Assembly: GCF_004001325.1 (NCBI RefSeq)
Contig: NZ_AP018722.1
Span: forward strand, 2,356,001 to 2,420,000
DNA: 64,000 bases
Direction of reading: 5' to 3'
Source of the DNA: Thiomicrorhabdus aquaedulcis
Lineage (GTDB): Bacteria > Pseudomonadota > Gammaproteobacteria > Thiomicrospirales > Thiomicrospiraceae
Shown: positions 5,726 to 62,687 of the stretch, in pieces
How positions within the stretch are numbered: position 1 is the stretch's first letter
Layout of the letters: every line of letters starts with the position of its first letter
Program-made: the position numbers and the translations under genes
Notes under the pieces: generated by a model
Told to the model about the DNA's origin: nothing
The model's database searches: none
The model's input: the letters and a program-made list of their open reading frames with translations, nothing else

Positions 5726-5737
5726 ACCAGGCCTGGT
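5726..5737. repeat. 12-bp palindrome, copy 1
   Basis: A perfect ACCAGGCCTGGT in the kdnB-kdsB gap, 38 bp from copy 2 (start to start). Confidence 0.95.
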
Positions 5738-5763
5738 CAGACGTTAAAACGTTAAAACAAATG

Positions 5764-5775
5764 ACCAGGCCTGGT
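5764..5775. repeat. 12-bp palindrome, copy 2
   Basis: The symmetry here extends to 18 bp (atgaccaggcctggtcat), 33 bp upstream of the kdsB start. An in-frame ATG inside it (5761) would extend kdsB by 16 residues, but that extension does not look like KdsB. Confidence 0.95.
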
Positions 5776-5808
5776 CATTGTTACTGCATAAAGATTAAAG
5801 GCCGTTTA

Positions 5809-6555
5809 ATGAACACCTATGTTTTTATTCCAGCGCGCTACGGCTCGTCGCGTTTACCGGGTAAGCCGCTTAAGCTGATTGCGGGCAAACCAATGATTCA
5901 GCACGTTTACGAACGCATCTCTAAAGCCACGGGGCTGGCTGGAGTGTACATTGCCACCGACGACGAACGCATTAAAACCGTGGTTGAAGCCTTTGGTGGA
6001 CAAGTGATTATGACGCCCGTTGAAGCCGCTTCGGGCACCGACCGCATAGCCGCGGCCGCCAACGCACTGGGGTTAAAAGACGACGATTTAATTGTCAATG
6101 TACAAGGCGACCAACCGCTGGTGCATCCGCAATCCATCACCGATGTGATTGCCCCGTTTTTAGCGGCCGACTACCAAGGCGCGTTTGAAATGAGCACCTT
6201 GTCGTTTAAAATTGTTAACGAAGCCGAAATCACCAACCCCAAAGACGTTAAATTGGTAACCGATTACAACGGCTTTGCACTGTATTTTTCGCGCGCCACC
6301 ATTCCACATGGCCGCGACTATTGGGATCACGACAGCTTTAAACACTTGGGCATCTACGCCTACACCAAACGCTTTGTTGATCTGTTTAACACTCTGCCCA
6401 TGGGACGTTTAGAAGACATCGAAAAACTCGAGCAACTGCGCGCGCTGGAATACGGCCATAAAATTAAAGTGGTGCAAAGCGCTTACGATTCACCCGAAGT
6501 GGATTTGCCCGGCGACATTGCCCTGATGGAAGCGTTGCTACTGGCCGGCCATTAA
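5809..6555 (+). CDS. kdsB: CMP-Kdo (or CMP-Kdo8N) synthetase
   Basis: KdsB activates Kdo with CTP to the CMP-sugar used by WaaA. The protein has 248 aa, the usual length. The N-terminus [16 protein letters not shown] is the CTP-binding signature, followed by [17 protein letters not shown] and the HLGIYAY region. The ATG at 5809 has AAAGG seven bases upstream and gives the canonical start. Because kdnA and kdnB lie immediately upstream, this enzyme probably accepts 8-amino-Kdo, as reported for the Shewanella enzyme of the same cluster; that preference is inferred from context. Two copies of the 12-bp palindrome sit in its leader and one follows the gene. Confidence 0.94.
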
Positions 6556-6608
6556 CACACTAAGCGAAACCCCAAATAGCAAAGTGATTTAAATTAAAGT
6601 TTAAAGTT

Positions 6609-6620
6609 ACCAGGCCTGGT
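6609..6620. repeat. 12-bp palindrome, copy 3
   Basis: A perfect copy between kdsB and the 269-bp inverted-repeat element, ending only five bases before that element. Confidence 0.95.
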
Positions 6621-6625
6621 CAATA

Positions 6626-10757: not shown

Positions 10758-11144
10758 ATGCGCGACATTATCTCTACCCCTAACGCTCCACAGGCCATCG
10801 GCACCTATTCGCAAGCGGTGCGCGTTGGTAATACCGTGTATTTATCTGGGCAAATTGCGCTTATTCCCGAAACCATGCAAATGGTCGAAGGTGATATTGC
10901 GCTTAGAATTCATCAGGTGTTTAAAAATCTTGCGGCGGTGTGTGAAGCGGCGGGCGGTTCGTTAAAAGACATGGTAAAGGTAAACATTTTTTTAACCGAT
11001 ATGGCCAACTTTGCCACGGTAAACGAAGTGATGGCGCAGTATTTTGAACAACCCTATCCCGCGCGTGCGGCGGTAGCGGTTAAGCAATTGCCCAAAGACA
11101 CCGACATTGAAATTGAAGGAATTATGGCGCTGTCGAGTTACTAA
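10758..11144 (+). CDS. ridA: RidA family enamine/imine deaminase
   Basis: RidA hydrolyses reactive 2-aminoacrylate-type intermediates released by PLP enzymes. The 128-aa length is typical. The signature includes APQAIGTYSQAV, LSGQI, the substrate-binding arginine in PARAAVAV (about 105) and the C-terminal IEIEGIMAL. An AAGGA ribosome binding site precedes the ATG. It lies 46 bp after spoT and may be cotranscribed. Its stop overlaps the stop of the convergent zur gene by a few bases, leaving no room for a separate terminator. Confidence 0.95.
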   Translation: MRDIISTPNAPQAIGTYSQAVRVGNTVYLSGQIALIPETMQMVEGDIALRIHQVFKNLAAVCEAAGGSLKDMVKVNIFLTDMANFATVNEVMAQYFEQPYPARAAVAVKQLPKDTDIEIEGIMALSSY

Positions 11145-11608
11145 CCCGCTTCTTGTGGCTGACAATGTTGGCACAAACCATGAATCTCTATGCCGGGCTG
11201 AACCACTTTAAAACTTAGCTCGGCGGCTTGCGCTACAATCGACGCCCACATGGCATCGGCCATCACCCATTCCTGGATTCGTCCACACGCATCGCACATA
11301 AAAAACTGTGCGGCACCGTGGTGCGGTTTGCCAATATGATCACACACCACATACTGACTGGTCGACGCCAAACGATGTACCAGGCCTGCTGACTCTAAAA
11401 AACTCAACGCTCGGTAAATGGTCATAGGCTGCGCGCCACTTTGCTGGGTTTGCTGATAATGTGCCAAAATTTCATACGCGGTTTGCGGTTGCGATTGCGC
11501 CACTAAAATGCTCAACACCTTTTCGCGCACGGGAGTGAGTTTTAAAGCCGCTTTTTGGCAGTGCGCATGCGCCTGATCGATAAAATTATGGGAACACTCT
11601 GCAGGCAT
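11141..11608 (-). CDS. zur: Zinc uptake regulator, Fur family
   Basis: Zur represses zinc-acquisition genes when zinc is bound. The 155-aa protein has an N-terminal winged helix (LTPVREKVLSILV, MTIYRALSFLESAGLVHR) and a dimerisation domain with two CxxC pairs (CDACG and CQHC) that hold the structural zinc. HHGAAQFFMCDACG is more like Zur than Fur. The gene starts nine bases after the COG0523 GTPase gene on the same strand, so the two form an operon behind the Zur-type palindrome at 12829, implying autoregulation. Confidence 0.9.
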   Translation of the reverse strand: MPAECSHNFIDQAHAHCQKAALKLTPVREKVLSILVAQSQPQTAYEILAHYQQTQQSGAQPMTIYRALSFLESAGLVHRLASTSQYVVCDHIGKPHHGAAQFFMCDACGRIQEWVMADAMWASIVAQAAELSFKVVQPGIEIHGLCQHCQPQEAG

Positions 11609-12889: not shown

Positions 12890-12901
12890 ACCAGGCCTGG
12901 T
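12890..12901. repeat. 12-bp palindrome, copy 4
   Basis: A perfect copy in the divergent gap between the COG0523 gene and the CPXCG-like gene, 36 bp from the Zur palindrome. Confidence 0.95.
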
Positions 12902-17912: not shown

Positions 17913-17924
17913 ACCAGGCCTGGT
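17913..17924. repeat. 12-bp palindrome, copy 5
   Basis: The symmetry extends to 22 bp (gcattgaccag and its complement). It lies 32 bp after the chemoreceptor stop and has no T run. Confidence 0.95.
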
Positions 17925-20341: not shown

Positions 20342-21253
20342 ATGACTCACATAAGCACCCATAAAATCACCCAACCAGCCATGCAACAAATAGCTCAAGA
20401 GGCGGCGCAACTTCTTCTGGACAGCCGGCTCAATCAAACCGCGCACAATAGCGCCATACGTTTGCCAAAGCCTTTACGCCCACAGACCTTTGACCAGGCC
20501 TGGTTAACCCAACAAGCGTTAACAGCCCAACGCGCACAAACGTTGTTAAACCCCGTTGTGGGTTGGAAATGCGGCCTACCGTTTGGACAAGCGTTACAAA
20601 ATAAAGTGGTCGCACCCATTTTTAAAGCGGGCGTACAGTGCCAATCGCCCTGCGCGGTAGTGTTGCAAAACGGCGCGTGCGCCTTTGAACCCGAGCTGGG
20701 CTTTACCCTAAAACACCCCTTGCCCGCCAGCAAAACGGCCTACACTCAAGAGCAGATAATGGCCGCCATTGGGCACGCTAACTTGGTGCTGGAACTGATT
20801 GAAAACCGCTATGAACCCAGCACCGATAATGCCGATAATGCAGATAATGCCGACGATTTAAACGCCCAACCGGTGTCGTTTTACGAACAGTTGGCCGACG
20901 GCTTGTTTCATCAAGGGCTATGGATTGGGCCACGCGTGCCATTAGACATGGCGTTTAACGCCGGTTGCATTGACTTTAGTCTTGAACTCAAAAAATCCGA
21001 AAGCCCAAACAGCACAGACACTCGCACGTTTAGCGGTCAACACCCCAATTTAAACCCCTTGGCACCGCTGTTTTGGCTGGTCGATTTTTTAAACCAACAA
21101 GGCATTGACCTCCCCGCTGGGCACATGATTATTACCGGATCGTACGCCGGTTTGTTGACGTGCCCACCCAACCAAACGCTGACGCTGAGCTATGGCACGC
21201 TGGGTAAAATAGTGGTTAGTTTTGTTGAGCAAGAGAGTAAGCGAAGTGTTTAG
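20342..21253 (+). CDS. MhpD-like 2-keto-4-pentenoate hydratase family protein
   Basis: A 303-aa protein of the fumarylacetoacetase-fold hydratase/decarboxylase family. Supporting segments are NPVVGWKCGLPF, FEPELGFTLKHPLP, ANLVLELIENRY and the closing ITGSYAGLLTCPP. The substrate in this organism is unknown, and no aromatic-degradation genes are nearby. It sits four bases after the AGCS gene. Two oddities: a ninefold DNA repeat (gataatgcc-like, 20826-20855) inserts DNADNADNADD into a variable loop, and a perfect copy of the 12-bp palindrome lies in frame and encodes DQAW near residue 52. Confidence 0.82.
   Translation: MTHISTHKITQPAMQQIAQEAAQLLLDSRLNQTAHNSAIRLPKPLRPQTFDQAWLTQQALTAQRAQTLLNPVVGWKCGLPFGQALQNKVVAPIFKAGVQCQSPCAVVLQNGACAFEPELGFTLKHPLPASKTAYTQEQIMAAIGHANLVLELIENRYEPSTDNADNADNADDLNAQPVSFYEQLADGLFHQGLWIGPRVPLDMAFNAGCIDFSLELKKSESPNSTDTRTFSGQHPNLNPLAPLFWLVDFLNQQGIDLPAGHMIITGSYAGLLTCPPNQTLTLSYGTLGKIVVSFVEQESKRSV
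20493..20504. repeat. 12-bp palindrome, copy 6 (intragenic)
   Basis: A perfect copy inside the hydratase gene, read as gac cag gcc tgg (Asp-Gln-Ala-Trp). Confidence 0.95.
20826..20855 (+). repeat. In-frame 9-bp tandem repeat
   Basis: Three to four units of gataatgcc/gataatgca in tandem, encoding Asp-Asn-Ala repeats. Copy-number change would keep the frame. Confidence 0.8.
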
Positions 21254-21287: not shown

Positions 21288-21299
21288 ACCAGGCCTGGT
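21288..21299. repeat. 12-bp palindrome, copy 7
   Basis: A perfect copy in the convergent gap after the hydratase gene, 109 bp from copy 8. The two flank the 72-bp repeat. Confidence 0.95.
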
Positions 21300-21396: not shown

Positions 21397-21408
21397 ACCA
21401 GGCCTGGT
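21397..21408. repeat. 12-bp palindrome, copy 8
   Basis: A perfect copy 12 bp beyond the end of yebC (minus), in the convergent gap. The symmetry extends to ctaccagg/cctggtag. Confidence 0.95.
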
Positions 21409-22269: not shown

Positions 22270-22281
22270 ACCAGGCCTGGT
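22270..22281. repeat. 12-bp palindrome, copy 9
   Basis: A perfect copy in the divergent yeeN / HD-GYP gap, 46 bp ahead of repeat A copy 3. Confidence 0.95.
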
Positions 22282-26305: not shown

Positions 26306-26980
26306 CTACGCGGTCTGCTCAAACGCCAAACCGGCGGCTTTCCACTCGGGAAACCCTTCGGCCAAACGCTGTGCGTTAAAGCCTTGTTGGCGCAATAACG
26401 CCACCACTTCATAAGCATACACACAAAATGGCCCACGACAATACGCGACAATGGCTTTGTTCTTGGGCAATGTACGCAGCCGTTTAACCATGTCATCGGT
26501 GCTCTGCGTTTGCACCGGGTCGATGTTAATCGCCCCCACAATGTGTCCACAAGCAAACTCTTTGGCCGGACGCACATCCAACACAATCAGCCCGTCATCG
26601 TGCAGACGAGCCGCCAACGCGGTCTGGCTCAGGGTGTCGTCGTGCAAAGCAGGGGTCAGCGTGTTTCTTAAGCGTTCCACCTCGGCCAAATGGGTTTGCG
26701 CGGTGTGCCTAAGTTGCTGCATAAGCCGCACCACCTCGTCGCTGGCCAACGTATACAAACGACTTTTGCCGTCTTTACGCACACTGACCAGGCCTGCTTG
26801 TTTTAACTGCTGCAAATGGCGCGACGTATTGGCCACGCTTAAACCACTTAACTGCGCCAACTCCTCTACCGCACGCTCGGCTTGCGCCAAATAATCCAAC
26901 AACTCAATACGCTGCGGCGACGACAAACTCTGCCCCATAACCGCCAACTGCACAAACATAGCCCGTTTAACGTCCGACAT
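26306..26980 (-). CDS. ArsR-type regulator fused to rhodanese
   Basis: A 224-aa fusion. The N-terminal ~100 residues form an ArsR-type winged helix (QRIELLDYLAQAERAVEELA, VANTSRHLQQLKQAGLV). The C-terminal ~110 residues form a rhodanese domain with an intact active-site cysteine in the loop CRGPFC, plus DVRPAKEF. Such fusions probably sense reactive sulfur (persulfide) through the rhodanese cysteine; this is inferred. I chose the ATG at 26980, which has AAGGTGA five bases upstream, over a GTG at 26986. A degenerate palindrome copy (accaggcctgct) lies within the winged-helix part. No neighbouring sulfur gene is evident, so the target is unknown. Confidence 0.88.
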   Translation of the reverse strand: MSDVKRAMFVQLAVMGQSLSSPQRIELLDYLAQAERAVEELAQLSGLSVANTSRHLQQLKQAGLVSVRKDGKSRLYTLASDEVVRLMQQLRHTAQTHLAEVERLRNTLTPALHDDTLSQTALAARLHDDGLIVLDVRPAKEFACGHIVGAINIDPVQTQSTDDMVKRLRTLPKNKAIVAYCRGPFCVYAYEVVALLRQQGFNAQRLAEGFPEWKAAGLAFEQTA

Positions 26981-27091: not shown

Positions 27092-27103
27092 ACCAGGCCT
27101 GGT
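27092..27103. repeat. 12-bp palindrome, copy 10
   Basis: A perfect copy between the stop of the outer-membrane protein gene and the start of the ArsR-rhodanese gene (both minus). Confidence 0.95.
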
Positions 27104-27121: not shown

Positions 27122-28234
27122 TTAAAACGTGGCTTTTAACGCCACATTTAAACCTAGAGTTTTGGCTTCTTCTAAATTTAACGCATCGCTCACTAACTCA
27201 ACTTTTAACCAAGTGGTTTGATACCCCAATTGCCAGGCCTGGGCGGTGGCGTTGTACAGTACCGCCATTTTGTGTTGCTGGGGATTAATAAATTGATAAC
27301 CCGCTGTATAAAACGCTTTAATGGCGTAATCGTCATAGTTAAACAGCAATGAATGCTGGCCATTTAAGACATAAGTGTTGTGCAAAAACACTTTGGTAGG
27401 AATTACCTGCGTCACATCCTTATACGATTGTGTGCCGCTGGCGACGGGCTTAAATTTTACAAATCCGTCTGCGTCAAATTCTTTGGTTTGCGAACTGCCT
27501 GTGGCCACCGTTCTAGGCGCGTCCCACCAATTTATGTGTGCCAATACATCGCGTACTTGCACATTGGCATGCCATTGCGGCGTCAAATATCCGTCCAGGT
27601 TTAAATCTAAAGCGTAGCCATTGCCCTTTACGTTGTTGGTTAAGGTACGGTCAAATAAACTGTCTTGCGAATAAACATAATCCACATCAAAATTAAAGTT
27701 GTAATCGTTATTAGCCACCGCGGTGGCTTGTCCAGTAAGCTTGCCATCGGTAAGCTCTAAGCCCTCTAAATACGACAAGGCTACACCCACATTAAACGGT
27801 GTTTTAAAATGATTTATTTGAGTTTGATAACCCAATTTTACGCCCTGCGCCACAAAGGCATTGGTTTGCAATTGCAATGCGTACTGCTCACCCACCACCA
27901 AATCTTGTTTAGTGTTGGTGGCGTGCAATAATTTAGCGGTGCTGGGTGAAAACTCAAACAAATAATCTTGACGTTCAAACACCGAAAACTGCCAATTGTT
28001 TACCGCTATGCCAATCTCGGCGCGGTTTATCGAAAACGCTATCTCACCCTTACTAAAGGGTGCGTTCCAGTCGTTTAAGATAGCGTGTACCGCAATCGCC
28101 TCACTGTGACTAAAACTGCTTATCTCAACAAACGGTTTATATTCTAGCGCCTGCACATTTGCGGCCATGCCCATAGTGCCTAAGACCGTGCCTAATGCAG
28201 TAATTGCCCATAAATAACTTTTCAAAATACGCAT
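27122..28234 (-). CDS. Predicted outer-membrane beta-barrel protein
   Basis: I do not recognise a named family. The 370-aa product starts MRILKSYLWAITALGTVLG and has a signal peptide ending near NVQA. The mature part alternates hydrophobic and polar residues in many short strands and ends in phenylalanine (ALKATF), as outer-membrane barrels do. An in-frame TTG at 28261 is possible but gives a worse signal peptide. The segment near 27233 holds the 10-bp palindrome core, encoding AQAW. It may be a porin or transport barrel. It lies downstream of the large lipoprotein gene but a terminator separates the two. Confidence 0.7.
   Translation of the reverse strand: MRILKSYLWAITALGTVLGTMGMAANVQALEYKPFVEISSFSHSEAIAVHAILNDWNAPFSKGEIAFSINRAEIGIAVNNWQFSVFERQDYLFEFSPSTAKLLHATNTKQDLVVGEQYALQLQTNAFVAQGVKLGYQTQINHFKTPFNVGVALSYLEGLELTDGKLTGQATAVANNDYNFNFDVDYVYSQDSLFDRTLTNNVKGNGYALDLNLDGYLTPQWHANVQVRDVLAHINWWDAPRTVATGSSQTKEFDADGFVKFKPVASGTQSYKDVTQVIPTKVFLHNTYVLNGQHSLLFNYDDYAIKAFYTAGYQFINPQQHKMAVLYNATAQAWQLGYQTTWLKVELVSDALNLEEAKTLGLNVALKATF
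27233..27242. repeat. 10-bp core of the palindrome (intragenic)
   Basis: CCAGGCCTGG, lacking the outer A/T pair, within the barrel gene. Confidence 0.8.
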
Positions 28235-34112: not shown

Positions 34113-34136
34113 AAACCGACCAGGCCTGGTCGGTTT
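34113..34136 (-). terminator. Terminator built on the 12-bp palindrome
   Basis: A perfect 24-bp palindrome (aaaccgaccagg and its complement) with seven T on the minus strand, 34 bp after the Gln-rich protein gene. The centre is palindrome copy 11. The stem has no unpaired loop, so it would form with a few central bases open. Confidence 0.75.
34119..34130. repeat. 12-bp palindrome, copy 11
   Basis: A perfect copy at the centre of the terminator stem. Confidence 0.95.
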
Positions 34137-35139: not shown

Positions 35140-35151
35140 ACCAGGCCTGGT
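35140..35151. repeat. 12-bp palindrome, copy 12
   Basis: A perfect copy immediately upstream of the DUF2805 start codon, where a ribosome binding site would normally be. Confidence 0.95.
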
Positions 35152-36574: not shown

Positions 36575-37456
36575 ATGACCCAATCGACCGAATTATCCCC
36601 AGCCATTTTGCCCACGCCGCCCGTGTCCATTTTAACGCGCGACCTAACCCTAACAGGTCACCTACCACCACAAGAGCTTAAGCAAGTGTTGGTGGTGGGT
36701 GCGAGTGGCGGCATTGGTCAGGCCTTTTGCCAGGCGTTAATAACGCTTAATCCGTCCATAACCCTAATACGCTTTGCACGCACGCTAACGCATTTAGACC
36801 AGGCCTGGTCAAACCCAAATTTAAACTCAAATACACGTCCTGCATTTGATTACACCATCGACTTAGCCGACGAAAGCACGTTTGAACCCGCCATCACCGC
36901 CTGCAAAAACGATTTGGCCGCACATCAAATTGACTTTAAACCCGACTGGGTTTTAATCGCCACCGGTTGGTTGCACGACCCCACCCATCAACCCGAAAAA
37001 ACCTACCAGCAGTTAGAAGCACAGACCATGCTGTACAGTTACCAGGTTAATGCAGTGGGCCCGATTTTATGGCTTAAAATGCTACTGCAAGCCCTGCCAC
37101 TTCGGCGTAACAGTCCTGCGCTTAAAATTGGTGTGCTTTCGGCTCGCGTAGGCAGTATTAGCGACAATCGCTTGGGCGGCTGGCACAGTTATCGCGCCAG
37201 CAAGGCGGCGTTAAACATGTTGCTTAAAAATTTGGCCATTGAACTGCAACGTAATCAAAAACCGGTAATTGTGGTGGGTTTGCAACCGGGCACGACTCAC
37301 ACGGCACTGTCTGCGCCATTTCAAAAAGGTTTAACGCCCAATCAAGTGCAAACCCCGGCCTACACCGCGCAACAACTTATAAAGGTAATGCAGGCTTTAG
37401 TGCCGCAAGACAGTGGCGAACTGTTTGATTTTTTAGGCTTGCCGTTTGCGCCGTAA
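36575..37456 (+). CDS. Short-chain dehydrogenase/reductase (C-factor-like)
   Basis: A 293-aa SDR oxidoreductase. A ~35-residue N-terminal extension precedes the NAD(P)-binding VLVVGASGGIGQAF. The catalytic SAR..YRASKAALNM supplies Ser, Tyr and Lys, and LQPGTTHT closes the cofactor site. The SARVGSISDNRLGGWHSY segment resembles CsgA/C-factor SDRs. The substrate is unknown. Palindrome copy 13 lies in frame and encodes DQAW between the cofactor loop and the next strand, in a loop likely to tolerate insertion. Confidence 0.85.
   Translation: MTQSTELSPAILPTPPVSILTRDLTLTGHLPPQELKQVLVVGASGGIGQAFCQALITLNPSITLIRFARTLTHLDQAWSNPNLNSNTRPAFDYTIDLADESTFEPAITACKNDLAAHQIDFKPDWVLIATGWLHDPTHQPEKTYQQLEAQTMLYSYQVNAVGPILWLKMLLQALPLRRNSPALKIGVLSARVGSISDNRLGGWHSYRASKAALNMLLKNLAIELQRNQKPVIVVGLQPGTTHTALSAPFQKGLTPNQVQTPAYTAQQLIKVMQALVPQDSGELFDFLGLPFAP
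36798..36809. repeat. 12-bp palindrome, copy 13 (intragenic)
   Basis: A perfect copy inside the SDR gene, read as Asp-Gln-Ala-Trp. Confidence 0.95.
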
Positions 37457-39812: not shown

Positions 39813-40473
39813 TGACACAACTTATTTTGCCGCGATTAATCCAACACAGGCCTCGGTTGCGGTGCAATCGTGGCTTAACACGCCCGGTTCGCTCACCGCA
39901 CGACTGCGTCAACAGTGTGCGCATTTGCAAGTGATTGTATTGGCCGAAGGGTTTACCACCCCCATGCCGTTTGAAATAACGCGTTTAAATTTGGGTTTTA
40001 AGGTAGAGCAAACCATTGACCAGGCCTGGGTAAGATGCGTTTTACTGCAATGCCCCAGCGTTAATCACTCTAACCCTAATAATGCACACAACAAACCCGC
40101 CCAAAACTGGGTGTACGCTCGCACAGTGATTCCCAACTTTACCCCACAAAACCCTTGGGCAAACTTGCAAACCCTGGGCAATCAACCCTTAGGCGAAATT
40201 TTGTTTGAGTACCCCAACATTCAACGCACCCCGTTTACGTTTTTTAACCCACCATTAGACACTTGGCCACACTTAAGCCAAGCCTTAAATCCATGCTTAA
40301 GCTCGCAACCAGAACTGCAACAACCAACACAACAACCAACACAACAACCCAAGCAACAACTCACCCAAAAAGCCTACGCGCGCAGCTCTATTTTTACCCA
40401 AATAAACGCACCGCAAAACGCTTACCCCCTGCACCTTACCGAAGTGTTTTTACCAGGCCTGGTCAAAGATTAA
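39805..40473 (+). CDS. ubiC: Chorismate lyase
   Basis: UbiC converts chorismate to 4-hydroxybenzoate and pyruvate, the first committed step of ubiquinone synthesis. The 222-aa protein shows WLNTPGSLTARLRQ, NWVYARTVIP, PLGEILFEYP and the late arginine segment YARSSIFT. A Gln/Pro/Thr-rich insertion (QQPTQQPTQQPKQQ) sits just before that segment. The gene overlaps recG by eight bases, so translation is likely coupled. A 10-bp palindrome core (40020) encodes DQAW and a full copy (40452) encodes PGLV near the C-terminus. ubiA, the next enzyme, is at 49981 on the other strand. Confidence 0.88.
   Translation: MLNDTTYFAAINPTQASVAVQSWLNTPGSLTARLRQQCAHLQVIVLAEGFTTPMPFEITRLNLGFKVEQTIDQAWVRCVLLQCPSVNHSNPNNAHNKPAQNWVYARTVIPNFTPQNPWANLQTLGNQPLGEILFEYPNIQRTPFTFFNPPLDTWPHLSQALNPCLSSQPELQQPTQQPTQQPKQQLTQKAYARSSIFTQINAPQNAYPLHLTEVFLPGLVKD
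40020..40029. repeat. 10-bp core of the palindrome (intragenic)
   Basis: gaccaggcctgggt in ubiC, one base short of the full 12-mer, encoding Asp-Gln-Ala-Trp. Confidence 0.85.
40452..40463. repeat. 12-bp palindrome, copy 14 (intragenic)
   Basis: A perfect copy in the last codons of ubiC, read in another frame from copies 6 and 13 (Pro-Gly-Leu-Val). Confidence 0.95.
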
Positions 40474-44751: not shown

Positions 44752-44763
44752 ACCAGGCCTGGT
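44752..44763. repeat. 12-bp palindrome, copy 15
   Basis: A perfect copy between the VWA-like gene and the DUF1840 gene. Confidence 0.95.
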
Positions 44764-48245: not shown

Positions 48246-48257
48246 ACCAGGCCTGGT
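48246..48257. repeat. 12-bp palindrome, copy 16
   Basis: A perfect copy between the envelope protein stop (48270) and the chemoreceptor start (48127), both minus. Confidence 0.95.
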
Positions 48258-49385: not shown

Positions 49386-49898
49386 ATGACCATGACCGAT
49401 CAAATTCATCAAATCCAAGCCTCCTATCAACCGCTTGAAGACAGAATACTCTTAAACATTAAAACCCTCAATCAGCATGTCTATTGTGCCTGGATTACAC
49501 GCCGTTACTTGCAATTGCTGCTGCCGGCCTTGCACGGCCATCATCCAACCAGCCACGAACCGCTGTTTGATCAAAAAAAGGCCATGCTTAATCAACTTAA
49601 AAATGAGGCAAGTCAATTATCTAACGGGTTTAATCAACCTTACCAGGCACCAGAACAAGCAATTTATCCACTGGGTGAAACCCCTATTTTATTGGCAAAG
49701 ATTACCTTTAAAGCATTAGACACGCCGGCTCCGTTTGTGCATTTAGAGCCGCACAGTGGACAAGGAATTTCGTTGCCCTTTCAGCCCGAACTGTTGGGCG
49801 CATTGCTTAAAGTGTTTGGACAAGCGATGGAGGCGGCCGATTGGCAATTAGATTTAAACCCCATTATGCAATTACCTAAACAGATGCGTTTGCAATGA
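49386..49898 (+). CDS. Conserved hypothetical protein
   Basis: A 170-aa soluble protein with no assigned function. The N-terminus has EDRILLNIKTLNQHVYCAWITRRYLQLLLPAL, resembling a small conserved gammaproteobacterial family that I cannot name. The stop codon (TGA) is shared with the outer arm of palindrome copy 17. It is divergent from the envelope protein gene and convergent with ubiA. Confidence 0.6.
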   Translation: MTMTDQIHQIQASYQPLEDRILLNIKTLNQHVYCAWITRRYLQLLLPALHGHHPTSHEPLFDQKKAMLNQLKNEASQLSNGFNQPYQAPEQAIYPLGETPILLAKITFKALDTPAPFVHLEPHSGQGISLPFQPELLGALLKVFGQAMEAADWQLDLNPIMQLPKQMRLQ

Positions 49899-49909
49899 CC
49901 AGGCCTGGT
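49898..49909. repeat. 12-bp palindrome, copy 17
   Basis: A perfect copy. The TGA stop of the preceding gene runs into it (tgaccaggcctggt). Confidence 0.95.
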
Positions 49910-52674: not shown

Positions 52675-52741
52675 CAATAATTAATCTAACTTAAATATGA
52701 GCAAAGACCGATGTACGAGTAGAATTATAGGCAAAAAAAAA

Positions 52742-52761
52742 CGCCCGAAGGCGCTTTTTTA
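52742..52761 (-). terminator. atp operon terminator
   Basis: A GC-rich stem gcgcc/ggcgt with a tetraloop-like centre (ttcg), flanked by A/T runs on both strands, 13 bp after atpC. Confidence 0.75.
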
Positions 52762-52773
52762 TCAGGGTAACAA

Positions 52774-53208: not shown

Positions 53209-53214
53209 AACACA

Positions 53215-54618
<1,404 letters not shown>

Positions 54619-54626
54619 CTACAAAC

Positions 54627-55490
54627 TTAAACAGCAGATGAACCAGATACAATTTCCGAAAGTTCGGCTGTAATGGCTGCTTGACGAGCTTTGTTATAAG
54701 AAAGTTTCAGCTCGCTAATCATTTCACCAGCATTGTCTGTTGCGTTTTTCATTGCCACCATACGAGCACCTTGCTCGCAAGCCGCATTTTCAACGACGGC
54801 ACCATAAACAGTGCTTTCAACATAACGACGCATTAACAAATCCAACGCTGTTTTAGCATCAGGTTCATACAGATAATCCCAGTGCGTGTTATCTGTTTTA
54901 TCAACAGATTGTAGAGGTACTAATTGTTGAATAGTAGGGCTTTGCGTCATAGTATTAACAAAACCGTTAGAGGCCAAATGAACCTCATCTACTTCGTGTG
55001 CATCAAACTTGTCTAAAACAACTTTAATAACACCAATTAGGTCCTCAACATGAGGTGTATCACCTAAGTCAGCAACCGTGGCAACCACATTTCCACCGTA
55101 ACTACGGAAGAAAGACTGCGCCTTATTACCAACCAAAGCAAGCTCAACCTCAACACCCTGTTCTCTCCATGCCTTTAGGCAAGGTAAAGTTTTGCGGAAT
55201 AAGTTTGAGTTTAAACCACCACATAAGCCTCGATCAGAAGAGATCACAATTAAGGCAACACGTTTAACCTTGGCACGAACTTGAGTATAAGGATGCTTAT
55301 ACTCAGGATGTGCGCCAGAAACGTGGCCAATGACCCGCTTAACTTTTTCGACGTATGGTTTAGTAGCTTCCATGCGAGCTTGCGCTCTACGCATTTTAGA
55401 AGCTGCCACCATTTCCATGGCTTTGGTGATTTTCTTGGTATTTGTTACGGAACCAATTTTGGCTCGTATTTCTTTGCTACCGCCTGCCAT
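54627..55490 (-). CDS. atpG: ATP synthase gamma subunit
   Basis: Central rotor stalk of F1. The 287-aa protein has the N-terminal helix [32 protein letters not shown], and the C-terminal [28 protein letters not shown]. The length is normal. It lies between atpA and atpD. Confidence 0.98.
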
Positions 55491-55504
55491 GGCCTACTCC
55501 TTTC

Positions 55505-57046
55505 TTAGTAAACGCCGTTTGCTTTGAATGCTTGAATGCATGCTTTTACACCTGCAATAATTTCATCATCCCAGCCGCCTTTTGCGTTAATTTTGGCAGC
55601 AAGTTCAGCGTGATCTGAGTTAAGAGAGGCATGCAATGCTGCTTCAAACGCTAACACTTTATCGACTTCAACATCGTCAAGGTAGCCTTCGTTAGCTGCA
55701 TATAAAGAGGTTGCCATCTCAGCAATTGTCAGTGGAGAATATTGCTTCTGCTTCATCAATTCAGTAACGCGTTTACCACGCTCTAACTGTGCTTTAGTAG
55801 CAGAATCTAGATCCGACGCAAACTGAGCAAATGCCGCTAATTCACGGTATTGAGCTAAGTCAAGACGAATACCACCGCCTAGCTTTTTAATCGCTTTAGT
55901 TTGAGCTGCACCACCAACACGTGATACTGACAAACCAGCGTTAACAGCAGGACGAATACCCTGTGTAAACAAACTCGTTTCTAAGAAAATCTGACCATCA
56001 GTAATCGAAATTACGTTGGTAGGAACGAAAGCAGAAACGTCACCCGCTTGGGTTTCAATAATTGGTAAAGCGGTCAATGAACCAGTCTTACCTTTAACGG
56101 CACCGTTAGTAAATCTTTCAACATAGTCTTCGTTAACACGAGCAGCACGCTCAAGTAAACGAGAATGTAGATAGAATACATCACCAGGGAACGCTTCGCG
56201 TCCTGGAGGACGACGTAATAACAATGAAATTTGACGGTAAGCTTGCGCTTGCTTGGTTAAATCATCATAAATGATCAAAGCATCTTCGCCGCGGTCACGA
56301 TAGTATTCACCCATCGCACAACCAGCGTAAGCAGCAAGGTACTGAAGAGCAGCTGGATCAGAAGCGTTTGCCGCAACAATCACTGTGTTTTCCATTGCGC
56401 CATATTCTTCTAGCTTACGTGCTACGTTGTTTACCGTTGAAGCTTTTTGCCCCATCGCAACATAAACACATTTAACACCAGTATTCTTTTGAGAAATAAT
56501 AGCGTCAATTGCGATTGCAGTTTTACCCGTTTGACGGTCGCCGATAATAAGTTCACGTTGTCCACGACCCACTGGGATCATAGAATCGATAGACTTAATA
56601 CCAGTCATCATAGGCTCATCAACCGATTTACGGTCGATAACACCGGGTGCTATACGTTCAATAGGTGATGTTAACTTAGTATCAATTGGTCCTTTACCAT
56701 CGATTGGACGGCCTAAACCATCAACAACACGACCGTTTAATTCAGGACCAACAGGTACTTCTAAAATACGACCAGTACAGGTAACTTTGTCACCTTCAGA
56801 GATATGCTCATATTCACCTAAAACGACCACACCTACTGAGTCTTGCTCTAAGTTAAGAGCCATACCAAAGGTGTTTTCGTCGAATTGAACCATCTCGCCA
56901 TACATTACGTCTGAGACGCCGTGAATAAGAGCGATACCGTCAGCGATGCTAACGACCGTTCCTTCACTGCCAGACTGTGCAGCACCATCAAAACCTTTAA
57001 TACGGTCTTTGATTAGGTTGCTGATTTCAGAGGCATTCAATTGCAT
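55505..57046 (-). CDS. atpA: ATP synthase alpha subunit
   Basis: Non-catalytic nucleotide-binding F1 subunit of 513 aa. It has the P-loop [49 protein letters not shown] and the signature [22 protein letters not shown]. The length is standard. Confidence 0.98.
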
Positions 57047-57061
57047 GTGTGTTCCTCTCCA

Positions 57062-57598
57062 TTATTGGGCGATTGCTGCGCCAAGTTTGTTCAGTTGTGA
57101 AAGTGCTGAGCCGTCAATAACCCAGTCACCGACCTTAATCTTAATACCTGCGATTAAAGTTGAATCCTCAACATAAGTAATTTCTACTTCAGCATCAAAC
57201 TTAGCATTTAAAGCAGCATTTAATTGTTTCTTCTGCTCGACAGTTACTTCACGGGCCGACATAACAGTCGCTCTTACACGTTTTTCTTCTGCAGCTTTTA
57301 AGACATGAAAAGCCTCAGCTACAAAAGGAATCGCACTTAAGCGTTTGTTTTCAGCCATAACGGCAAGAAGGTTTTTCCCTTCTACAGTCAGGTTTCCACC
57401 CATTACTTCCGAATAAACAGACAAAATATTTTCGTCGGAGTAAAGGGGGTTTTGAATCATGGACGACATTGCTTCATCAGCAGTAATAGTCGCAAGATTA
57501 TCAAGTTGTTCTGACCATTCCGATAGTTTTTGAGCTTCTAATCCAAGCGCAAAAACAGCTTCAGCATAAGGTCGTGCAATTGTCATTAATTGTGCCAT
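57062..57598 (-). CDS. atpH: ATP synthase delta subunit
   Basis: Peripheral-stalk subunit that joins F1 to the b dimer. The 178-aa protein has the N-terminal helical bundle (TIARPYAEAVFALGLEAQKL) and the C-terminal segment VEITYVEDSTLIAGIKIKVGD. It lies between atpF and atpA. Confidence 0.97.
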   Translation of the reverse strand: MAQLMTIARPYAEAVFALGLEAQKLSEWSEQLDNLATITADEAMSSMIQNPLYSDENILSVYSEVMGGNLTVEGKNLLAVMAENKRLSAIPFVAEAFHVLKAAEEKRVRATVMSAREVTVEQKKQLNAALNAKFDAEVEITYVEDSTLIAGIKIKVGDWVIDGSALSQLNKLGAAIAQ

Positions 57599-57608
57599 AG
57601 AGTTTTCC

Positions 57609-58079
57609 TTAGATTGATTTTACTAAGGCTTCAAGCATGTTGTTGTGCGCTGCTGCATCTACTTCTTTGTTCAGAATTTTTTCTGCACCAGATACAACAA
57701 GAGCAGCCACTTCTTTACGAAGCTCTTCTCTTGCACGACTTACTTCTTGCTCTATTTCTGCATGGGCGGAAGCTTTAATACGATCCGCTTCTTCAGCGGC
57801 TTTTACTTTCGCATCTTCTACGATTTCAGAGCCACGCTTTTCAGCTAGACCTAGTATATTTTGAGCTTGTGATTTAGCGTCTTTTAGCACCTCTTTGGCG
57901 CGTTGTTCGGCTAATTCAAGCTCATGCTTTCCTTTCTCGGCGGCTGAAAGGCCATCAGCGATTTTCTTCTGACGATCTTCCATTAACTTTGAAAGTGGCC
58001 CCCACAGTACCTTGTTCACAAACCAAATCAATAGCACAAATGCAATAATCTGGATGAGAAGCGTTGCGTTAATACTCAC
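57609..58079 (-). CDS. atpF: ATP synthase b subunit
   Basis: Peripheral-stalk subunit of 156 aa. An N-terminal membrane anchor (INATLLIQIIAFVLLIWFVN) is followed by a long charged coiled coil. WGPLSKLMEDRQKKIADGL is the conserved junction. Ten bases separate it from atpH. Confidence 0.97.
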   Translation of the reverse strand: MSINATLLIQIIAFVLLIWFVNKVLWGPLSKLMEDRQKKIADGLSAAEKGKHELELAEQRAKEVLKDAKSQAQNILGLAEKRGSEIVEDAKVKAAEEADRIKASAHAEIEQEVSRAREELRKEVAALVVSGAEKILNKEVDAAAHNNMLEALVKSI

Positions 58080-58140
58080 AGTGGTTACCTCGCCATTCGT
58101 TATTAATTAATACTTAATTGGATGCATTAAGTGTTTAGGA

Positions 58141-58431
58141 TTAAGCTCCTAAAGCGGCTTTCATTGCACCAACGAATGGGTTTGCGAACAAGAACCACAT
58201 TGCGAAAGCTAGGATAATGAATGGGAATGATTCCATCAAACCAGCAAAGATGAACATGTTAGTCATTAATGCTGGACGCATTTCTGGCTGACGTGCAATT
58301 CCTTCAAGAGTCTTAGAACAAATTAGACCCCAACCAATTGCTGAACCCAGACCAGCAGCAGCCAAAATTACACCTACACCAATAGCAGTTGCAGAGTAGA
58401 TATCAGCGATCATAGTAGCAGTTACTTCCAT
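58141..58431 (-). CDS. atpE: ATP synthase c subunit
   Basis: Proton-translocating ring subunit. From the ATG at 58431 (TTGGAG upstream) it has 96 aa in two hairpin helices. The loop is ARQPEM, and the proton-binding glutamate is in GLMESFPFII, where E. coli has aspartate. The ring is proton-type rather than sodium-type as far as can be judged by eye. An in-frame start 11 codons upstream lacks a ribosome binding site. Confidence 0.96.
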   Translation of the reverse strand: MEVTATMIADIYSATAIGVGVILAAAGLGSAIGWGLICSKTLEGIARQPEMRPALMTNMFIFAGLMESFPFIILAFAMWFLFANPFVGAMKAALGA

Positions 58432-58571
58432 CGATTTTCTCCAAAGTTTAAAGTTAAAAAACAAAGTTAAAAAGCTTTTTACCGTCGTATCAAATAATTA
58501 TGAAACGTAAGTAGGTGCGCTTAAACCCTTTTGATGTTTTATTGCTAAAACACCTATTCTTTTCTTGTTTA

Positions 58572-58582
58572 ACCAGGCCTGG

Positions 58583-58583
<1 letters not shown>
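58572..58583. repeat. 12-bp palindrome, copy 18
   Basis: A perfect copy in the atpB-atpE gap that overlaps the atpB stop. The atpB stop codon TGA is the start of the extended palindrome on the coding strand. Confidence 0.95.
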
Positions 58584-59811
<1,228 letters not shown>

Positions 59812-59838
59812 TTTTTTGCTCCACTTCTGGAGCTGTGT

Positions 59839-60075
59839 TTAATCGACTTGAAAGTTTATGGATTTTTGCATTCCGCCCACAAACCCCAGTACACCACACA
59901 ACATTAAAAATATGGGCATGGTGCCAAAAAGTTCATCTAAAAGATACCCTACAATAAACCCAGCAATAATCATTGAGGTAAAAATAGAACCTGCACTCAT
60001 TAACAGAATATTCAACCCAGGTTTAGGGGCTTCTGTTGACGCTTGGGGTGTTGATTCTTTTTTAATATCGCTCAT
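59839..60075 (-). CDS. atpZ: AtpZ/AtpI family protein
   Basis: A ~78-aa protein with two membrane helices (SAGSIFTSMIIAGFIVGYLL and MPIFLMLCGVLGFVGGM) and a polar N-terminus. It is the first gene of the atp operon and fits the AtpZ-type accessory family. I chose the ATG at 60075 because the open frame up to 60141 (with CLTCQYHYKS) looks unlike the family. Confidence 0.78.
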   Translation of the reverse strand: MSDIKKESTPQASTEAPKPGLNILLMSAGSIFTSMIIAGFIVGYLLDELFGTMPIFLMLCGVLGFVGGMQKSINFQVD

Positions 60076-60360
60076 TGGCTGCGCAAAACTCTTGTAATGA
60101 TACTGACAAGTTAAACATAGTTCAACCTTATCGGGCGCCAATCATAATGTTTTATGCCCCCAAAAGCTAGCTTGCAATCGGCTTTTTGCGGGTTAATTTT
60201 TACTTAAAAATGTGTGTTTTTAATACTCATAACAACATAATGTTATTTGGTTTTTTGAATCACAATATGTATTAAAAAACGCTTTATAATTTTTTTAAAA
60301 CATTTATTAAATACGCTAATGGGTCTTAATGTATTTTATTTATAGACCGATTTGGTTTTC
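60076..60360. other. Intergenic region between parB and the atp operon
   Basis: About 285 bp, strongly AT-rich in 60210-60360, between the 3' end of parB and the start of the atp operon (both minus). It presumably carries the atp promoter and parB terminator. I see no DnaA-box cluster. Confidence 0.4.
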
Positions 60361-61230
60361 TTAAAAATATCCCATTATTCGATTAAGCTCTTCTAAGTTT
60401 TTGTAACTTATTTCTAGCTTGCCAGCGCCATTAATACGATGATTAATTTTTACCTTGGTGTCTATCTTAGCCATCAGTAAATTTTGTTTTTCAACTAAAT
60501 CACTCAGGCCGGGTATTGCCTTCTGTTTAGCTGCTTTAATTAACTTATTGGGAATTAAATACTCTTGTGCAGCCTCTTCTATTTGACGTACTGACCAACC
60601 TTTGGCAATCGCTTTTTGCGCTAAATCTGCTTGCACGGTTTCAGGTAAACTAATAATAGCGCGGGCATGCCCCATTGACAGCTCACCTTGATGCAATGAA
60701 TCCTGAATGGCTTGGGGTAACTTAAGAAGTCTTAATAAATTGGATACGGCGGCACGTGAACGACCTACTGCATCGGCTACCGATTGCTGGGTGAGATCAA
60801 ACTCCACCAAAAGACGCTTTAGACCAATGGCAGTTTCAATTGGATTTAGGTCTTCGCGCTGAATGTTTTCTATAATGGCCATCGCCAAAGTTGCCTGGCC
60901 GTCGGCCTGACGAATAACCACTGGCACTTTATCTAAACCGGCCATTTTGGCGGCGCGCCAACGGCGCTCTCCCGCAATAATTTCAAAATGATTGTCGTTA
61001 AGCGGTCTTACAATAATAGGTTGAACCACGCCTTGTACTTTTATGGAGTTGGCTAGCTCTTGCAATGACTCTGTCGAAAACTGTTGCCGAGGCTGATACT
61101 GTCCAGGCTTTAGACATTCTACCGATACTTTTTCGATGCGCATGTCTGCGCTGCTGTTTTCAGCTTTTTGTTTTGCGCCAATCATGGCGTGAATACCAAG
61201 ATTTCCCATTCCAGAGCGTTTTTTTGACAC
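60361..61230 (-). CDS. parB: Chromosome-partitioning protein ParB
   Basis: ParB binds parS, spreads as a CTP-dependent clamp and recruits ParA/SMC. The 289-aa protein has the CTP-binding domain (QYQPRQQF, IIAGERRWRAAKM), a helix-turn-helix (SVADAVGRSRAAVSNLLRLL, ELSMGHARAI) and a C-terminal dimerisation domain. It lies 33 bp after parA in the usual order. Confidence 0.96.
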   Translation of the reverse strand: MSKKRSGMGNLGIHAMIGAKQKAENSSADMRIEKVSVECLKPGQYQPRQQFSTESLQELANSIKVQGVVQPIIVRPLNDNHFEIIAGERRWRAAKMAGLDKVPVVIRQADGQATLAMAIIENIQREDLNPIETAIGLKRLLVEFDLTQQSVADAVGRSRAAVSNLLRLLKLPQAIQDSLHQGELSMGHARAIISLPETVQADLAQKAIAKGWSVRQIEEAAQEYLIPNKLIKAAKQKAIPGLSDLVEKQNLLMAKIDTKVKINHRINGAGKLEISYKNLEELNRIMGYF

Positions 61231-61263
61231 CTTAATTCACCTTATTTCAATTAATCGGCTAGG

Positions 61264-62031
61264 TTACAACTGGGTTTTACGAATGAGTTCGTTTGCAAGC
61301 GCTAAATAGGCCATGGCACCGTTTGAAGCTGCGTCATAATCCAAAATGGATTCGCCGTAGCTAGGTGCTTCGGCCAATCGAACGTTTCTGGGAATAATGG
61401 TTTGCAATACTTTCATACCAAAATGGCTTACCAATTGGTTAGAAACATCATTGGCTAGATTATTACGGCGATCGTGCATGGTTCTTAAAAGGCCGTCAAT
61501 ATGCAAACTACTATTGAGCTGTGCTTGAATGGTTTCAATGGTGTCCATGAGCGACGACAAGCCTTCTAACGCAAAAAACTCGCACTGCACTGGCACGACA
61601 ATGCCGTCTGCGGCGGTGAGCGCGTTTAAGGTGAGCATGTTGAGCGTGGGCGGGCAATCGATAATAATGGCATCGTATTGATCGCGCACTTTTTTTAGCG
61701 CCTTTCGCAAACGTTTTGGCCCCATGTCTTCATTAAGCAAAGTGACTTCGGCGGCGGTTAAATCGCTGTTGGCCGGTAATAAATCGAGCTTGGCCAGTTC
61801 AATGGGCAATATCGCGTCTTTTATTTTGGTGTCGCCCACCAACACATCAAATACCGACAGGGTTAAGCTGTCTTTGTTGGCGCCAATGGCCACTGTGGCA
61901 TTGCCTTGGGGGTCTAAATCAATGAGTAAAATGGTTTTACCCAAACGCGCTAACGCCGCCGCTAAATTTACACTGGTGGTGGTTTTACCGACGCCACCTT
62001 TTTGGTTGGCTATTGCAATCACTCTTCCCAC
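61264..62031 (-). CDS. parA: Chromosome-partitioning ATPase ParA (Soj)
   Basis: A 255-aa deviant-Walker ATPase that moves ParB-parS complexes. It has the P-loop NQKGGVGKTTTSVNLA, DLDPQGNAT, IIDCPPTLN, and RNVRLAEAPSYG near the end. The length fits the chromosomal Soj type without an N-terminal DNA-binding extension. It is nine bases after rsmG. Confidence 0.97.
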   Translation of the reverse strand: MGRVIAIANQKGGVGKTTTSVNLAAALARLGKTILLIDLDPQGNATVAIGANKDSLTLSVFDVLVGDTKIKDAILPIELAKLDLLPANSDLTAAEVTLLNEDMGPKRLRKALKKVRDQYDAIIIDCPPTLNMLTLNALTAADGIVVPVQCEFFALEGLSSLMDTIETIQAQLNSSLHIDGLLRTMHDRRNNLANDVSNQLVSHFGMKVLQTIIPRNVRLAEAPSYGESILDYDAASNGAMAYLALANELIRKTQL

Positions 62032-62040
62032 GGTGCGTCC

Positions 62041-62687
62041 TTAAATGATATTGGTGCTTGGTTTGATGGCTTTAATAAGCATTCTTTGTGCTTGTAATCC
62101 TGGAACATGCAATTCAATCATCTCCTGCAGAGTGACCAGGCCTGGTAGGTTTGAATAATCTTCAAAATCTTTTTGCGCCTTCATCGCCCACCAAACTCCG
62201 TCTGCACTCAGTAAATGTTCGGTCCAATATAACATGTCGGCCAAAGACGCAAAGGCACGAGAAATAACGCCATCGTACAATGTATTGGGTTTATATTCTT
62301 CAACACGAGCATGAATGACCTGGCTGTTTTTTAGGCCTAACTCAGCTTTAGCCTGAATTAAAAACCGAGTTTTTTGCTGTTGCTGTCGAGTAAATCAACT
62401 TGACGCTCTGGATAACAAATCGCCAAGGGAATCCCAGGTAAACCACCGCCCGTGCCCACGTCTATAATGGACTGGCTGGAAATGTGCGGCACAACCGCCA
62501 AGCTGTCGAACAGGTGTTTAACCAACATTTCGCGCGGATCGCGAATCGCGGTTAAGTTGTAGACTTTGTTCCATTTTTGCAGCAGCGCCAAATACGCCAT
62601 TAACTGCTCTATTTGCATAGCATTTAGTGATAAATTTAAGACGCTTAAGCCTTTTTCGAGCTCGGCTTGTTGTACCAAAGAGGACAT
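62041..62687 (-). CDS. rsmG: 16S rRNA 7-methylguanosine methyltransferase, frameshifted
   Basis: RsmG (GidB) methylates G527 of 16S rRNA. The N-terminal half is in one frame ([46 protein letters not shown]). The frame breaks at the six-T run 62370-62375 (plus strand). With one added A on the coding strand it reads [13 protein letters not shown], then [21 protein letters not shown], to the end, giving 215 aa, the family length. Palindrome copy 19 lies in the second half and encodes LPGLV. Loss of rsmG in nature gives low-level streptomycin resistance, so a real null is conceivable, but a base-call error is likelier here. Confidence 0.9.
62135..62146. repeat. 12-bp palindrome, copy 19 (intragenic)
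   Basis: A perfect copy inside rsmG, encoding Leu-Pro-Gly-Leu-Val on the coding strand. Confidence 0.95.

What the first reader, a model, noticed from the sequence alone, without database searches (positions are those of the whole stretch)
5726..62146. A 12-bp perfect palindrome, ACCAGGCCTGGT, occurs 19 times in 64 kb
Seen directly: 19 perfect copies (5726, 5764, 6609, 12890, 17913, 20493, 21288, 21397, 22270, 27092, 34119, 35140, 36798, 40452, 44752, 48246, 49898, 58572, 62135) plus two 10-bp cores (27233, 40020) and several degenerate ones. Random expectation for a 12-mer in 64 kb is about 0.004. Fifteen of 19 are between genes, in convergent, divergent and codirectional gaps alike. The extended consensus is TTGACCAGGCCTGGTCAA. 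It does not track promoters or terminators consistently, so a plain operator or terminator role does not explain it. Inference: it could be a chromosome-wide binding site (like Noc/SlmA or HIP1-type motifs), a methylation-linked motif (it contains two overlapping CCWGG sites and AGGCCT), or a self-spreading palindrome.
Basis: partly seen in the sequence, partly recalled or inferred. Interest (0 to 1): 0.8.

Follow-up and report, generated by a model that had tools for sequence, protein, structure and literature searches.

The report
Genome-wide palindromic tag in sulfur bacteria
A short mirror-symmetric DNA word is written hundreds of times across the genomes of one family of sulfur bacteria, in lineage-specific spellings, and it behaves like the self-recognition tags that some bacteria use when taking up DNA, though that use has not been shown here.

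Summary
ACCAGGCCTGGT occurs 19 times in the window and 718 times in the 2.54-Mb genome; its reverse occurs 0 times. The firm part is the 8-bp core CAGGCCTG (1106 copies). The family is Thiomicrospiraceae. In 60 family genomes the core is bimodal: 31 hold 236-1133 copies, 29 hold 0-74. In 365 other genomes of the class the 10-mer reaches at most 46. Outer bases differ by lineage ("dialects"), and one species has ACCGGCCGGT instead (1025 copies). A tree suggests an ancestral trait with several losses. Sites are about six times denser between genes than within, densest in convergent gaps; genic sites look like in-frame substitutions, not insertions. None of three methyltransferase families tracks the motif, so a HIP/methylation origin is unlikely; a mobile repeat, a terminator or Dcm sites fit poorly. 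Anatomy and evolution match the DNA uptake sequences of Neisseriaceae and Pasteurellaceae, except for the perfect symmetry. Uptake and receptor are untested; a genome-wide binding site of a dimeric protein is the main rival.

The parts
5726..5737 (.). 12-mer copy 1, codirectional gap
5764..5775 (.). 12-mer copy 2 (perfect dyad 20 bp), codirectional gap upstream of a cytidylyltransferase gene
6609..6620 (.). 12-mer copy 3, codirectional gap
11379..11390 (.). CAGGCCTG core with one degenerate arm, inside gene 11141-11608(-)
12890..12901 (.). 12-mer copy 4, divergent gap
17913..17924 (.). 12-mer copy 5, perfect dyad 26 bp, codirectional gap, strong hairpin if transcribed
20493..20504 (.). 12-mer copy 6, inside gene 20342-21253(+), read as DQAW
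21288..21299 (.). 12-mer copy 7, convergent gap
21397..21408 (.). 12-mer copy 8, same convergent gap
22270..22281 (.). 12-mer copy 9, divergent gap
26787..26798 (.). CAGGCCTG core with one degenerate arm, inside gene 26306-26980(-)
27092..27103 (.). 12-mer copy 10, codirectional gap
27232..27243 (.). 10-bp core (27233-27242), inside gene 27122-28234(-)
34119..34130 (.). 12-mer copy 11, perfect dyad 24 bp followed by a T run on the - strand (terminator-like), codirectional gap
35140..35151 (.). 12-mer copy 12, codirectional gap
36798..36809 (.). 12-mer copy 13, inside gene 36575-37456(+), read as DQAW
40019..40030 (.). 10-bp core (40020-40029), inside gene 39805-40473(+)
40452..40463 (.). 12-mer copy 14, near the 3' end of gene 39805-40473(+), read as PGLV
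44752..44763 (.). 12-mer copy 15, codirectional gap
48246..48257 (.). 12-mer copy 16, codirectional gap
49898..49909 (.). 12-mer copy 17, convergent gap, touching the end of frame 49386-49898(+)
58572..58583 (.). 12-mer copy 18, inside the atp operon between the ATP synthase A-chain and C-subunit genes, touching the end of the former
62135..62146 (.). 12-mer copy 19, upstream of the ParA-like gene 61264-62022(-)

Best explanation
The word is a genome-wide self-recognition tag that works like a DNA uptake sequence. SHOWN: hundreds of copies of a firm 8-bp palindromic core with lineage-specific outer bases; present across four genera of the family, absent from several branches within them, once replaced by another palindrome; found at permissive places between genes and in reading frames, where it aligns as substitution, not insertion; rare on the cell's second, plasmid-like contig; denser after genes and sometimes part of a terminator-like hairpin; no tracking methyltransferase among three families. 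INFERRED: a DNA-binding component of the competence machinery (unknown, perhaps a minor pilin, paired or dimeric, which would explain the symmetry) binds the word and favours import of DNA that carries it. Recombination of imported fragments copies the word into genomes faster than mutation removes it, so copies build up where they do little harm. When the receptor's taste drifts, the whole set of copies drifts with it (dialects); when specificity or uptake is lost, the copies decay.
For: 718 copies, reversed control 0. Core counts bimodal in 60 genomes: 31 at 236-1133, 29 at 0-74; reversed core at most 36. Dialects: outer GT then C/T, A in the window's genome; GC in G005; C or G then T in G052; C/T in G047; T/G in G023; GTAA in G031, G049, G032; GTG in G056, G058; and ACCGGCCGGT, 1025 copies, in G026. 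Tree: rich genomes in four genera, poor ones in separate groups, G022 (74 cores) sister to G047 (859). In-frame origin: ubiA codons at 162 read CAG GCC TGG in 14 of 27 rich genomes and 0 of 13 others with data; over five genic positions 29 of 31 site-bearing alignments have no gap within about 10 residues in either row. Frames used unevenly, 30/24/6. Density about 6 times higher between genes than in genes; convergent gaps 3.06/kb against 0.88 and 0.78 (p 2e-5). Second contig 5 copies against 28 expected. AT-rich tracts at +2..4 and +9..12, weaker near +20, at gap sites. ComEC found in 30 of 31 rich genomes; the exception is 82% complete. Published uptake sequences are scarce in new segments, rRNA genes and coding DNA, have AT tracts and slightly different lineage versions (passages of PMC7811141), and associate with terminators (passage of PMC3630211).
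Against: The known uptake sequences, DUS and USS, are not palindromes as I recall them. Nothing here shows that any Thiomicrospiraceae is competent: two paper searches found no paper and a third two papers that are unrelated by title. ComEC is also present in 25 of 29 poor genomes, so it does not separate the groups. Type IV pilin-like genes occur in 14 of 14 genomes searched, rich and poor, and no receptor was found. The +9..12 AT tract is much weaker at genic sites and at gap sites may partly be terminator T runs. Even spacing is not clear: dispersion index 0.30 in 20 sampled windows (p 0.001) but 0.65-0.92 in a contiguous 311 kb, and 0.65 (p 0.13) for the core in the sampled windows. The ubiA 162 site is shared by several genera, so it may be one old event, and QAW also occurs there without the core in 3 rich genomes.
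Confidence: 0.5

Rival explanations
1. Binding site of a dimeric chromosome-organising or global regulatory protein (in the style of Noc, SlmA or a nucleoid protein). The symmetry reflects a homodimer; sites are kept by selection on chromosome function.
For: Perfect dyad with graded, symmetric outer preferences up to about 18 bp and AT tracts on both sides; all 20 sampled 20-kb stretches of the chromosome hold 3-8 copies, few on the second contig.
Against: Hundreds of sites, including genic ones that go with amino-acid differences between relatives, are hard to keep by selection one by one; the trait is absent from several inner branches and replaced once among close relatives. No candidate protein was searched for.
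Confidence: 0.28
2. A HIP-type iterated palindrome driven by a methyltransferase and methyl-dependent mismatch repair, as proposed for HIP1 in cyanobacteria.
For: Iterated GC-rich palindrome with an alternate word in a relative, as in the abstract of PMC4390886; the window's genome has one C5 methyltransferase.
Against: No match to PF00145 in 21 of 31 rich genomes, to PF01555 in 19, to PF02086 in 24, to any of the three in 10, nor in G026; PF00145 is as frequent in poor genomes (12 of 29) as in rich ones (10 of 31). Other methyltransferase families were not searched. CCWGG outside core sites is 425 against 690 expected.
Confidence: 0.08
3. RNA or DNA hairpin element: transcription terminator or mRNA stabiliser.
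For: Convergent-gap enrichment; in codirectional gaps median 43 bp after the stop codon; two of three window hairpins folded give -18 and -19.4 kcal/mol, z -3.8 and -4.3.
Against: 60 of 133 sampled sites are inside predicted genes; one lies inside the atp operon and folds weakly, z -1.8; of 32 two-mismatch variants 6 have mirrored mismatches and only 1 is still a palindrome; by eye most gap sites printed have no long T run.
Confidence: 0.06
4. Mobile or self-copying short palindrome (REP/MITE-like).
For: High copy number, denser between genes.
Against: Genic sites align to orthologues without insertion in 29 of 31 site-bearing alignments over five positions; the other two, at parB 203, have a gap nearby but not in the core; no shared flank; outer bases differ by lineage in concert. 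REP-associated transposases were not searched.
Confidence: 0.03

Closest known systems
DNA uptake sequences (DUS) of Neisseriaceae and uptake signal sequences (USS) of Pasteurellaceae
   Same: Hundreds of copies, lineage dialects, scarcity in coding DNA and on the second contig, occasional terminator-like use, AT tracts by the core, copies inside reading frames (passages)
   Different: Perfect 8- to 12-bp palindrome, so no orientation; in one species the word is two bases shorter; receptor and uptake bias unknown
HIP1 and alternate HIPs of cyanobacteria
   Same: Iterated GC-rich palindromes with alternate words in related genomes (abstract)
   Different: No tracking methyltransferase among three families; longer word; strong preference for gaps between genes
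Noc, SlmA and similar chromosome binding sites (recalled)
   Same: Chromosome-wide palindromes bound by dimers
   Different: About ten times more copies than I recall for those; loss and replacement between related species
REP elements with RAYT transposases (recalled; abstract start of PMC2817692 seen in a listing)
   Same: Many palindromes between genes
   Different: Here shorter than I recall for REPs, no insertion signature, present inside reading frames

Membership tests
DNA uptake sequences (DUS/USS) | Short word in strong excess over the whole genome | tested here: met
   718 copies, control 0; expected about 0.1
DNA uptake sequences (DUS/USS) | Biases uptake of DNA by competent cells | not testable with these tools
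   needs transformation or uptake assays
DNA uptake sequences (DUS/USS) | Competence machinery present | tested here: inconclusive
   ComEC in 30 of 31 rich genomes but also in 25 of 29 poor ones; other competence genes not searched
DNA uptake sequences (DUS/USS) | Cognate receptor (minor pilin such as ComP) | tested here: inconclusive
   pilin-like genes in 14 of 14 genomes searched, rich and poor; no receptor picked out
DNA uptake sequences (DUS/USS) | Scarce in coding and in acquired DNA | tested here: met
   coding; second contig only; chromosomal islands not tested
DNA uptake sequences (DUS/USS) | Dialects between related lineages | tested here: met
   small samples for some lineages
DNA uptake sequences (DUS/USS) | Non-palindromic, oriented word (recalled) | tested here: not met
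   ACCAGGCCTGGT is its own reverse complement
HIP sequences | Iterated palindrome with a matching methyltransferase | tested here: not met
   other methyltransferase families not searched
REP/RAYT elements | Moves or copies as an inserted unit | tested here: not met
   29 of 31 site-bearing alignments gap-free around the core, none with a gap in it
Noc/SlmA-type binding sites | Bound by a specific chromosome-associated protein | not testable with these tools
   no binding data
Intrinsic terminators | Hairpin plus T run after genes | tested here: inconclusive
   true for some sites; 60 of 133 sites genic

The most novel reading that the evidence does not exclude
A third, independently evolved uptake or self-recognition signal in bacteria, and the first that is a perfect palindrome: a family of sulfur bacteria marks its genomes with a symmetric word read by an unknown dimeric or paired receptor, with dialects that in one species differ even by the loss of one base from each arm (CCAGGCCTGG against CCGGCCGG), and with repeated losses that give natural before-and-after comparisons.
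Probability: 0.45. Interest if true: 0.85.

Novelty: new variant of a known kind. Interest (0 to 1): 0.7.

Why it matters
To my knowledge uptake sequences are well described in two bacterial families only, and why they exist is still argued: benefit of exchange with kin, or by-product of a biased receptor. A third case with a symmetric word, several dialects, several losses and one replacement inside one small family would allow the drive model to be tested by comparison alone. If it is instead a protein-binding site, it would be one of the densest chromosome-wide site systems known to me. Either way it is a quick genome signature for the family and a lead to a receptor. I found no description in print, within these limits: no paper holds the 12-mer among the ranked results for the word (20 of 49 listed; a paper with the 12-mer would rank first); 18 of 18 papers with the core look unrelated by title; searches for iterated palindromes (14 of 14 listed) and for Thiomicrospira with palindromes or uptake sequences (20 of 58 listed) and for Thiomicrorhabdus, Hydrogenovibrio and T. 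crunogena with transformation, uptake sequence or competence (0, 0 and 2 papers) showed none.

Tried and rejected
Methylation: three methyltransferase families over 60 genomes do not track the motif. Dcm/CCWGG: not enriched outside the core and lacking in the GCAGGCCTGC and CCGGCCGG words. Hairpin covariation: of 32 two-mismatch variants 1 is a compensated palindrome. Even spacing as an argument: results conflict, so I do not lean on it. Island avoidance: the two largest gaps in the first 311 kb hold ordinary-looking genes and a long repetitive stretch, and no Rfam match; not informative (the tRNA scan, covered L031 only). Viral spread: the 18-mer has no exact match in viral contigs. Pilin content as the switch: no clear difference. 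ComEC: in G022, which I take for the freshest loss (74 cores, sister 859), the ComEC frame ends early and a methyltransferase frame and a tail-fibre-like frame follow; suggestive only, since the loss of hundreds of sites must be older than a recent insertion. The gene caller is my own script and rough; it missed some atp genes at first and was loosened, so genic and gap counts are approximate. Relatives' flank profiles are biased, because those loci were chosen by the 18-mer.
Full report
WHAT IS THERE. The window is bases 2,356,001-2,420,000 of a 2.44-Mb contig that comes with a second contig of 96.8 kb; the whole genome has 718 copies and none of the reversed control word, against about 0.1 expected from base composition. 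In 464 kb of the chromosome (window plus 20 stretches of 20 kb) there are 133 perfect copies, 46 with one mismatch and 32 with two, against 0, 0 and 6 for the reversed word. Of the 46 single mismatches 40 sit in the outer two bases of either side, so the firm part is the 8-bp core CAGGCCTG, of which the genome has 1106. Outside the 12-mer, a T two bases before and an A two bases after are preferred (79%), and AT-rich stretches recur at +2..4 and +9..12, weakly around +20, on both sides of gap sites; at genic sites the +9..12 tract is weak.

WHOSE GENOME. The family is Thiomicrospiraceae: 81 of the 83 stretches that contain TTGACCAGGCCTGGTCAA in the named genome collection are Thiomicrorhabdus, Hydrogenovibrio or Thiomicrospira; the other two are an unnamed gammaproteobacterial MAG and one Plantactinospora, the latter probably chance (the window's own records may be left out of that scan). 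Genome G021 has a contig of the same length as one of T. arctica DSM 13458, and it is listed as same genus as the window's genome, so the window's genus is probably Thiomicrorhabdus (inference).

DISTRIBUTION IN RELATIVES. The order held here consists of the same 62 genomes as the family. The 12-mer is in 41 of 62, at 80 or more copies in 27. The core is a better marker: of 60 of these genomes, 31 have 236-1133 and 29 have 0-74 copies, while the reversed core has at most 36. In 365 genomes of the class outside the family the 10-mer CCAGGCCTGG reaches at most 46, against 856 in the window's genome. A tree from pieces of eight ATP-synthase, Par and GlmU proteins of 40 genomes (one more, G016, dropped for lack of data; one FastTree run, midpoint root, support values not looked at) puts rich genomes in four genera; poor ones within that part form one group in g3 (G007, G008, G013), one in g1 (G029, G024, G050, G026, G030, G042, G051) and a single species, G022, next to the rich G047; the two outermost genomes, G001 and G017, are poor. 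The simplest reading is presence in the common ancestor of the four genera and at least three losses.

DIALECTS. The bases after the core differ by lineage: GT then C/T and A in the window's genome; GC in G005; C or G, then T, in G052 (AGCAGGCCTGCT); C/T in G047; T/G in G023; GTAA in G031, G049 and G032; GTG in G056 and G058. Species that look nearly empty for the 12-mer are full for the core (G023: 16 and 900; G047: 25 and 859). G026, inside the poor g1 group, has 12 cores but 1025 copies of ACCGGCCGGT; every other genome of the 60 has 15 or fewer. Its word is the old one with one base less in each arm. Some samples are small (6-22 sites). Samples of several other poor genomes showed no other strongly iterated palindrome of this kind (20-60 kb each, so weaker signals could be missed).

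PLACEMENT. Of 72 sites assigned to gaps 44 are in codirectional, 19 in convergent and 9 in divergent ones, or 0.88, 3.06 and 0.78 per kb (convergent excess p 2e-5). In codirectional gaps the median distance to the stop codon before is 43 bp. Some sites form the head of a long perfect hairpin followed by T (for example 34119), but by eye most do not. Genic sites use mainly two of three frames: PGLV 30, QAW 24, TRPG 6. On the second contig there are 5 copies where 28 would be expected.

HOW COPIES ARISE. In the shared ubiA-glmU-atp-par region of about 12 kb, the 27 rich genomes fetched (of 31) have 1-5 cores each, at 20 different kinds of place in all; the commonest are the ubiA-glmU gap (16 genomes) and ubiA codon 162 (14). 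At five genic positions the core lies on codons that align with the window's own protein, which lacks it; 29 of 31 site-bearing alignments have no gap within about 10 residues, and the other two, at parB 203, have a gap nearby but not in the core. The sets are lineage-specific, with amino-acid differences: CAG GCC TGG (QAW) at ubiA 162 in 14 of 27 rich genomes and in none of 13 non-rich genomes with data, where QVW, QSW or AAW and others stand, although 3 rich genomes have QAW in other codons; PGL at ubiA 39 in the eight g6 genomes, with the core in 5; DQAW at parB 203 in 4 g6 genomes. This speaks against insertion of a mobile palindrome at those places and for a force acting on the DNA word itself. 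The direction of each change was not reconstructed.

WHAT THE FORCE MAY BE. Methylation-coupled repair, as proposed for HIP1 (abstract of PMC4390886), needs a methyltransferase that tracks the word. PF00145, PF01555 and PF02086 were each searched in the 60 genomes; 10 of 31 rich genomes have no match to any of them, nor has G026. Other families, such as type I enzymes, were not searched. The remaining force that I know of is biased DNA uptake, where fragments bearing the word enter and recombine more often. Features told in the passages that I read of PMC7811141 (scarcity in new segments, rRNA genes and coding DNA, AT tracts, slightly different versions between lineages, drive without need of benefit) and PMC3630211 (permissive regions, gaps, terminators) are largely matched here; rRNA genes were not tested. 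ComEC is in 30 of 31 rich genomes, which the reading requires, but also in 25 of 29 poor ones; those would have to be competent without preference, or not competent for other reasons. Among the poor, G050, G036, G019 and G020 have no match, and G022 has an early-ending frame with phage-like genes after it. Pilin-like genes are in all 14 genomes looked at and do not separate rich from poor.

LIMITS. No experiment, no methylation data, no receptor. The symmetry is unlike known uptake words as I recall them, and is what a dimeric protein site would show; that rival stays at 0.28. Evenness of spacing, which first looked striking, does not hold up in a contiguous stretch. The gene map is approximate. 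Names of four relatives come from matching contig lengths.

VERDICT. A real, family-specific, genome-wide iterated palindrome with dialects. It works most like an uptake sequence; it cannot be filed as one, because uptake bias is untested and the symmetry departs from the known ones. New variant of a known kind.

Noticed in passing
window 170, 336, 2576, 13376, 22327, 22474, 52662: A second repeated word, GAGACCTTTGCAC, 7 copies in the window and 23 (12-mer) in the 400-kb sample, some in inverted pairs about 150-170 bp apart (170/336, 22327/22474), like ends of small MITE-like elements; none in the sampled stretches of six relatives.
   Followed up: partly
L326 (G022:C1:84000-93000): The ComEC frame ends early, about residue 599 of 867 of the relative's protein; a phage-type DNA methyltransferase frame and a tail-fibre-like frame follow, so a prophage may lie in comEC.
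   Followed up: partly
window 14966-17881(+) and 45233-48127(-): Two chemoreceptor genes of about 970 aa with the same PAS, HAMP and MCP-signal domain order.
   Followed up: no
window 49981-62022(-): UbiA, GlmU-like, ATP synthase and ParB/ParA genes in one row, an order that I recall from beside chromosome origins; conserved in the relatives compared.
   Followed up: no
L063 (G008:C1:100001-120000): AGCCGGCT 18 times and many 8- to 12-mers 18-37 times in one 20-kb stretch; looks like a long repetitive gene, not a dispersed motif.
   Followed up: no
G000:C1 about 119000-129000 (L330, L032): The second-largest gap without the 12-mer in the first 311 kb contains a long stretch with few genes called and a repetitive-looking 879-aa fragment, perhaps a giant surface protein.
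   Followed up: partly
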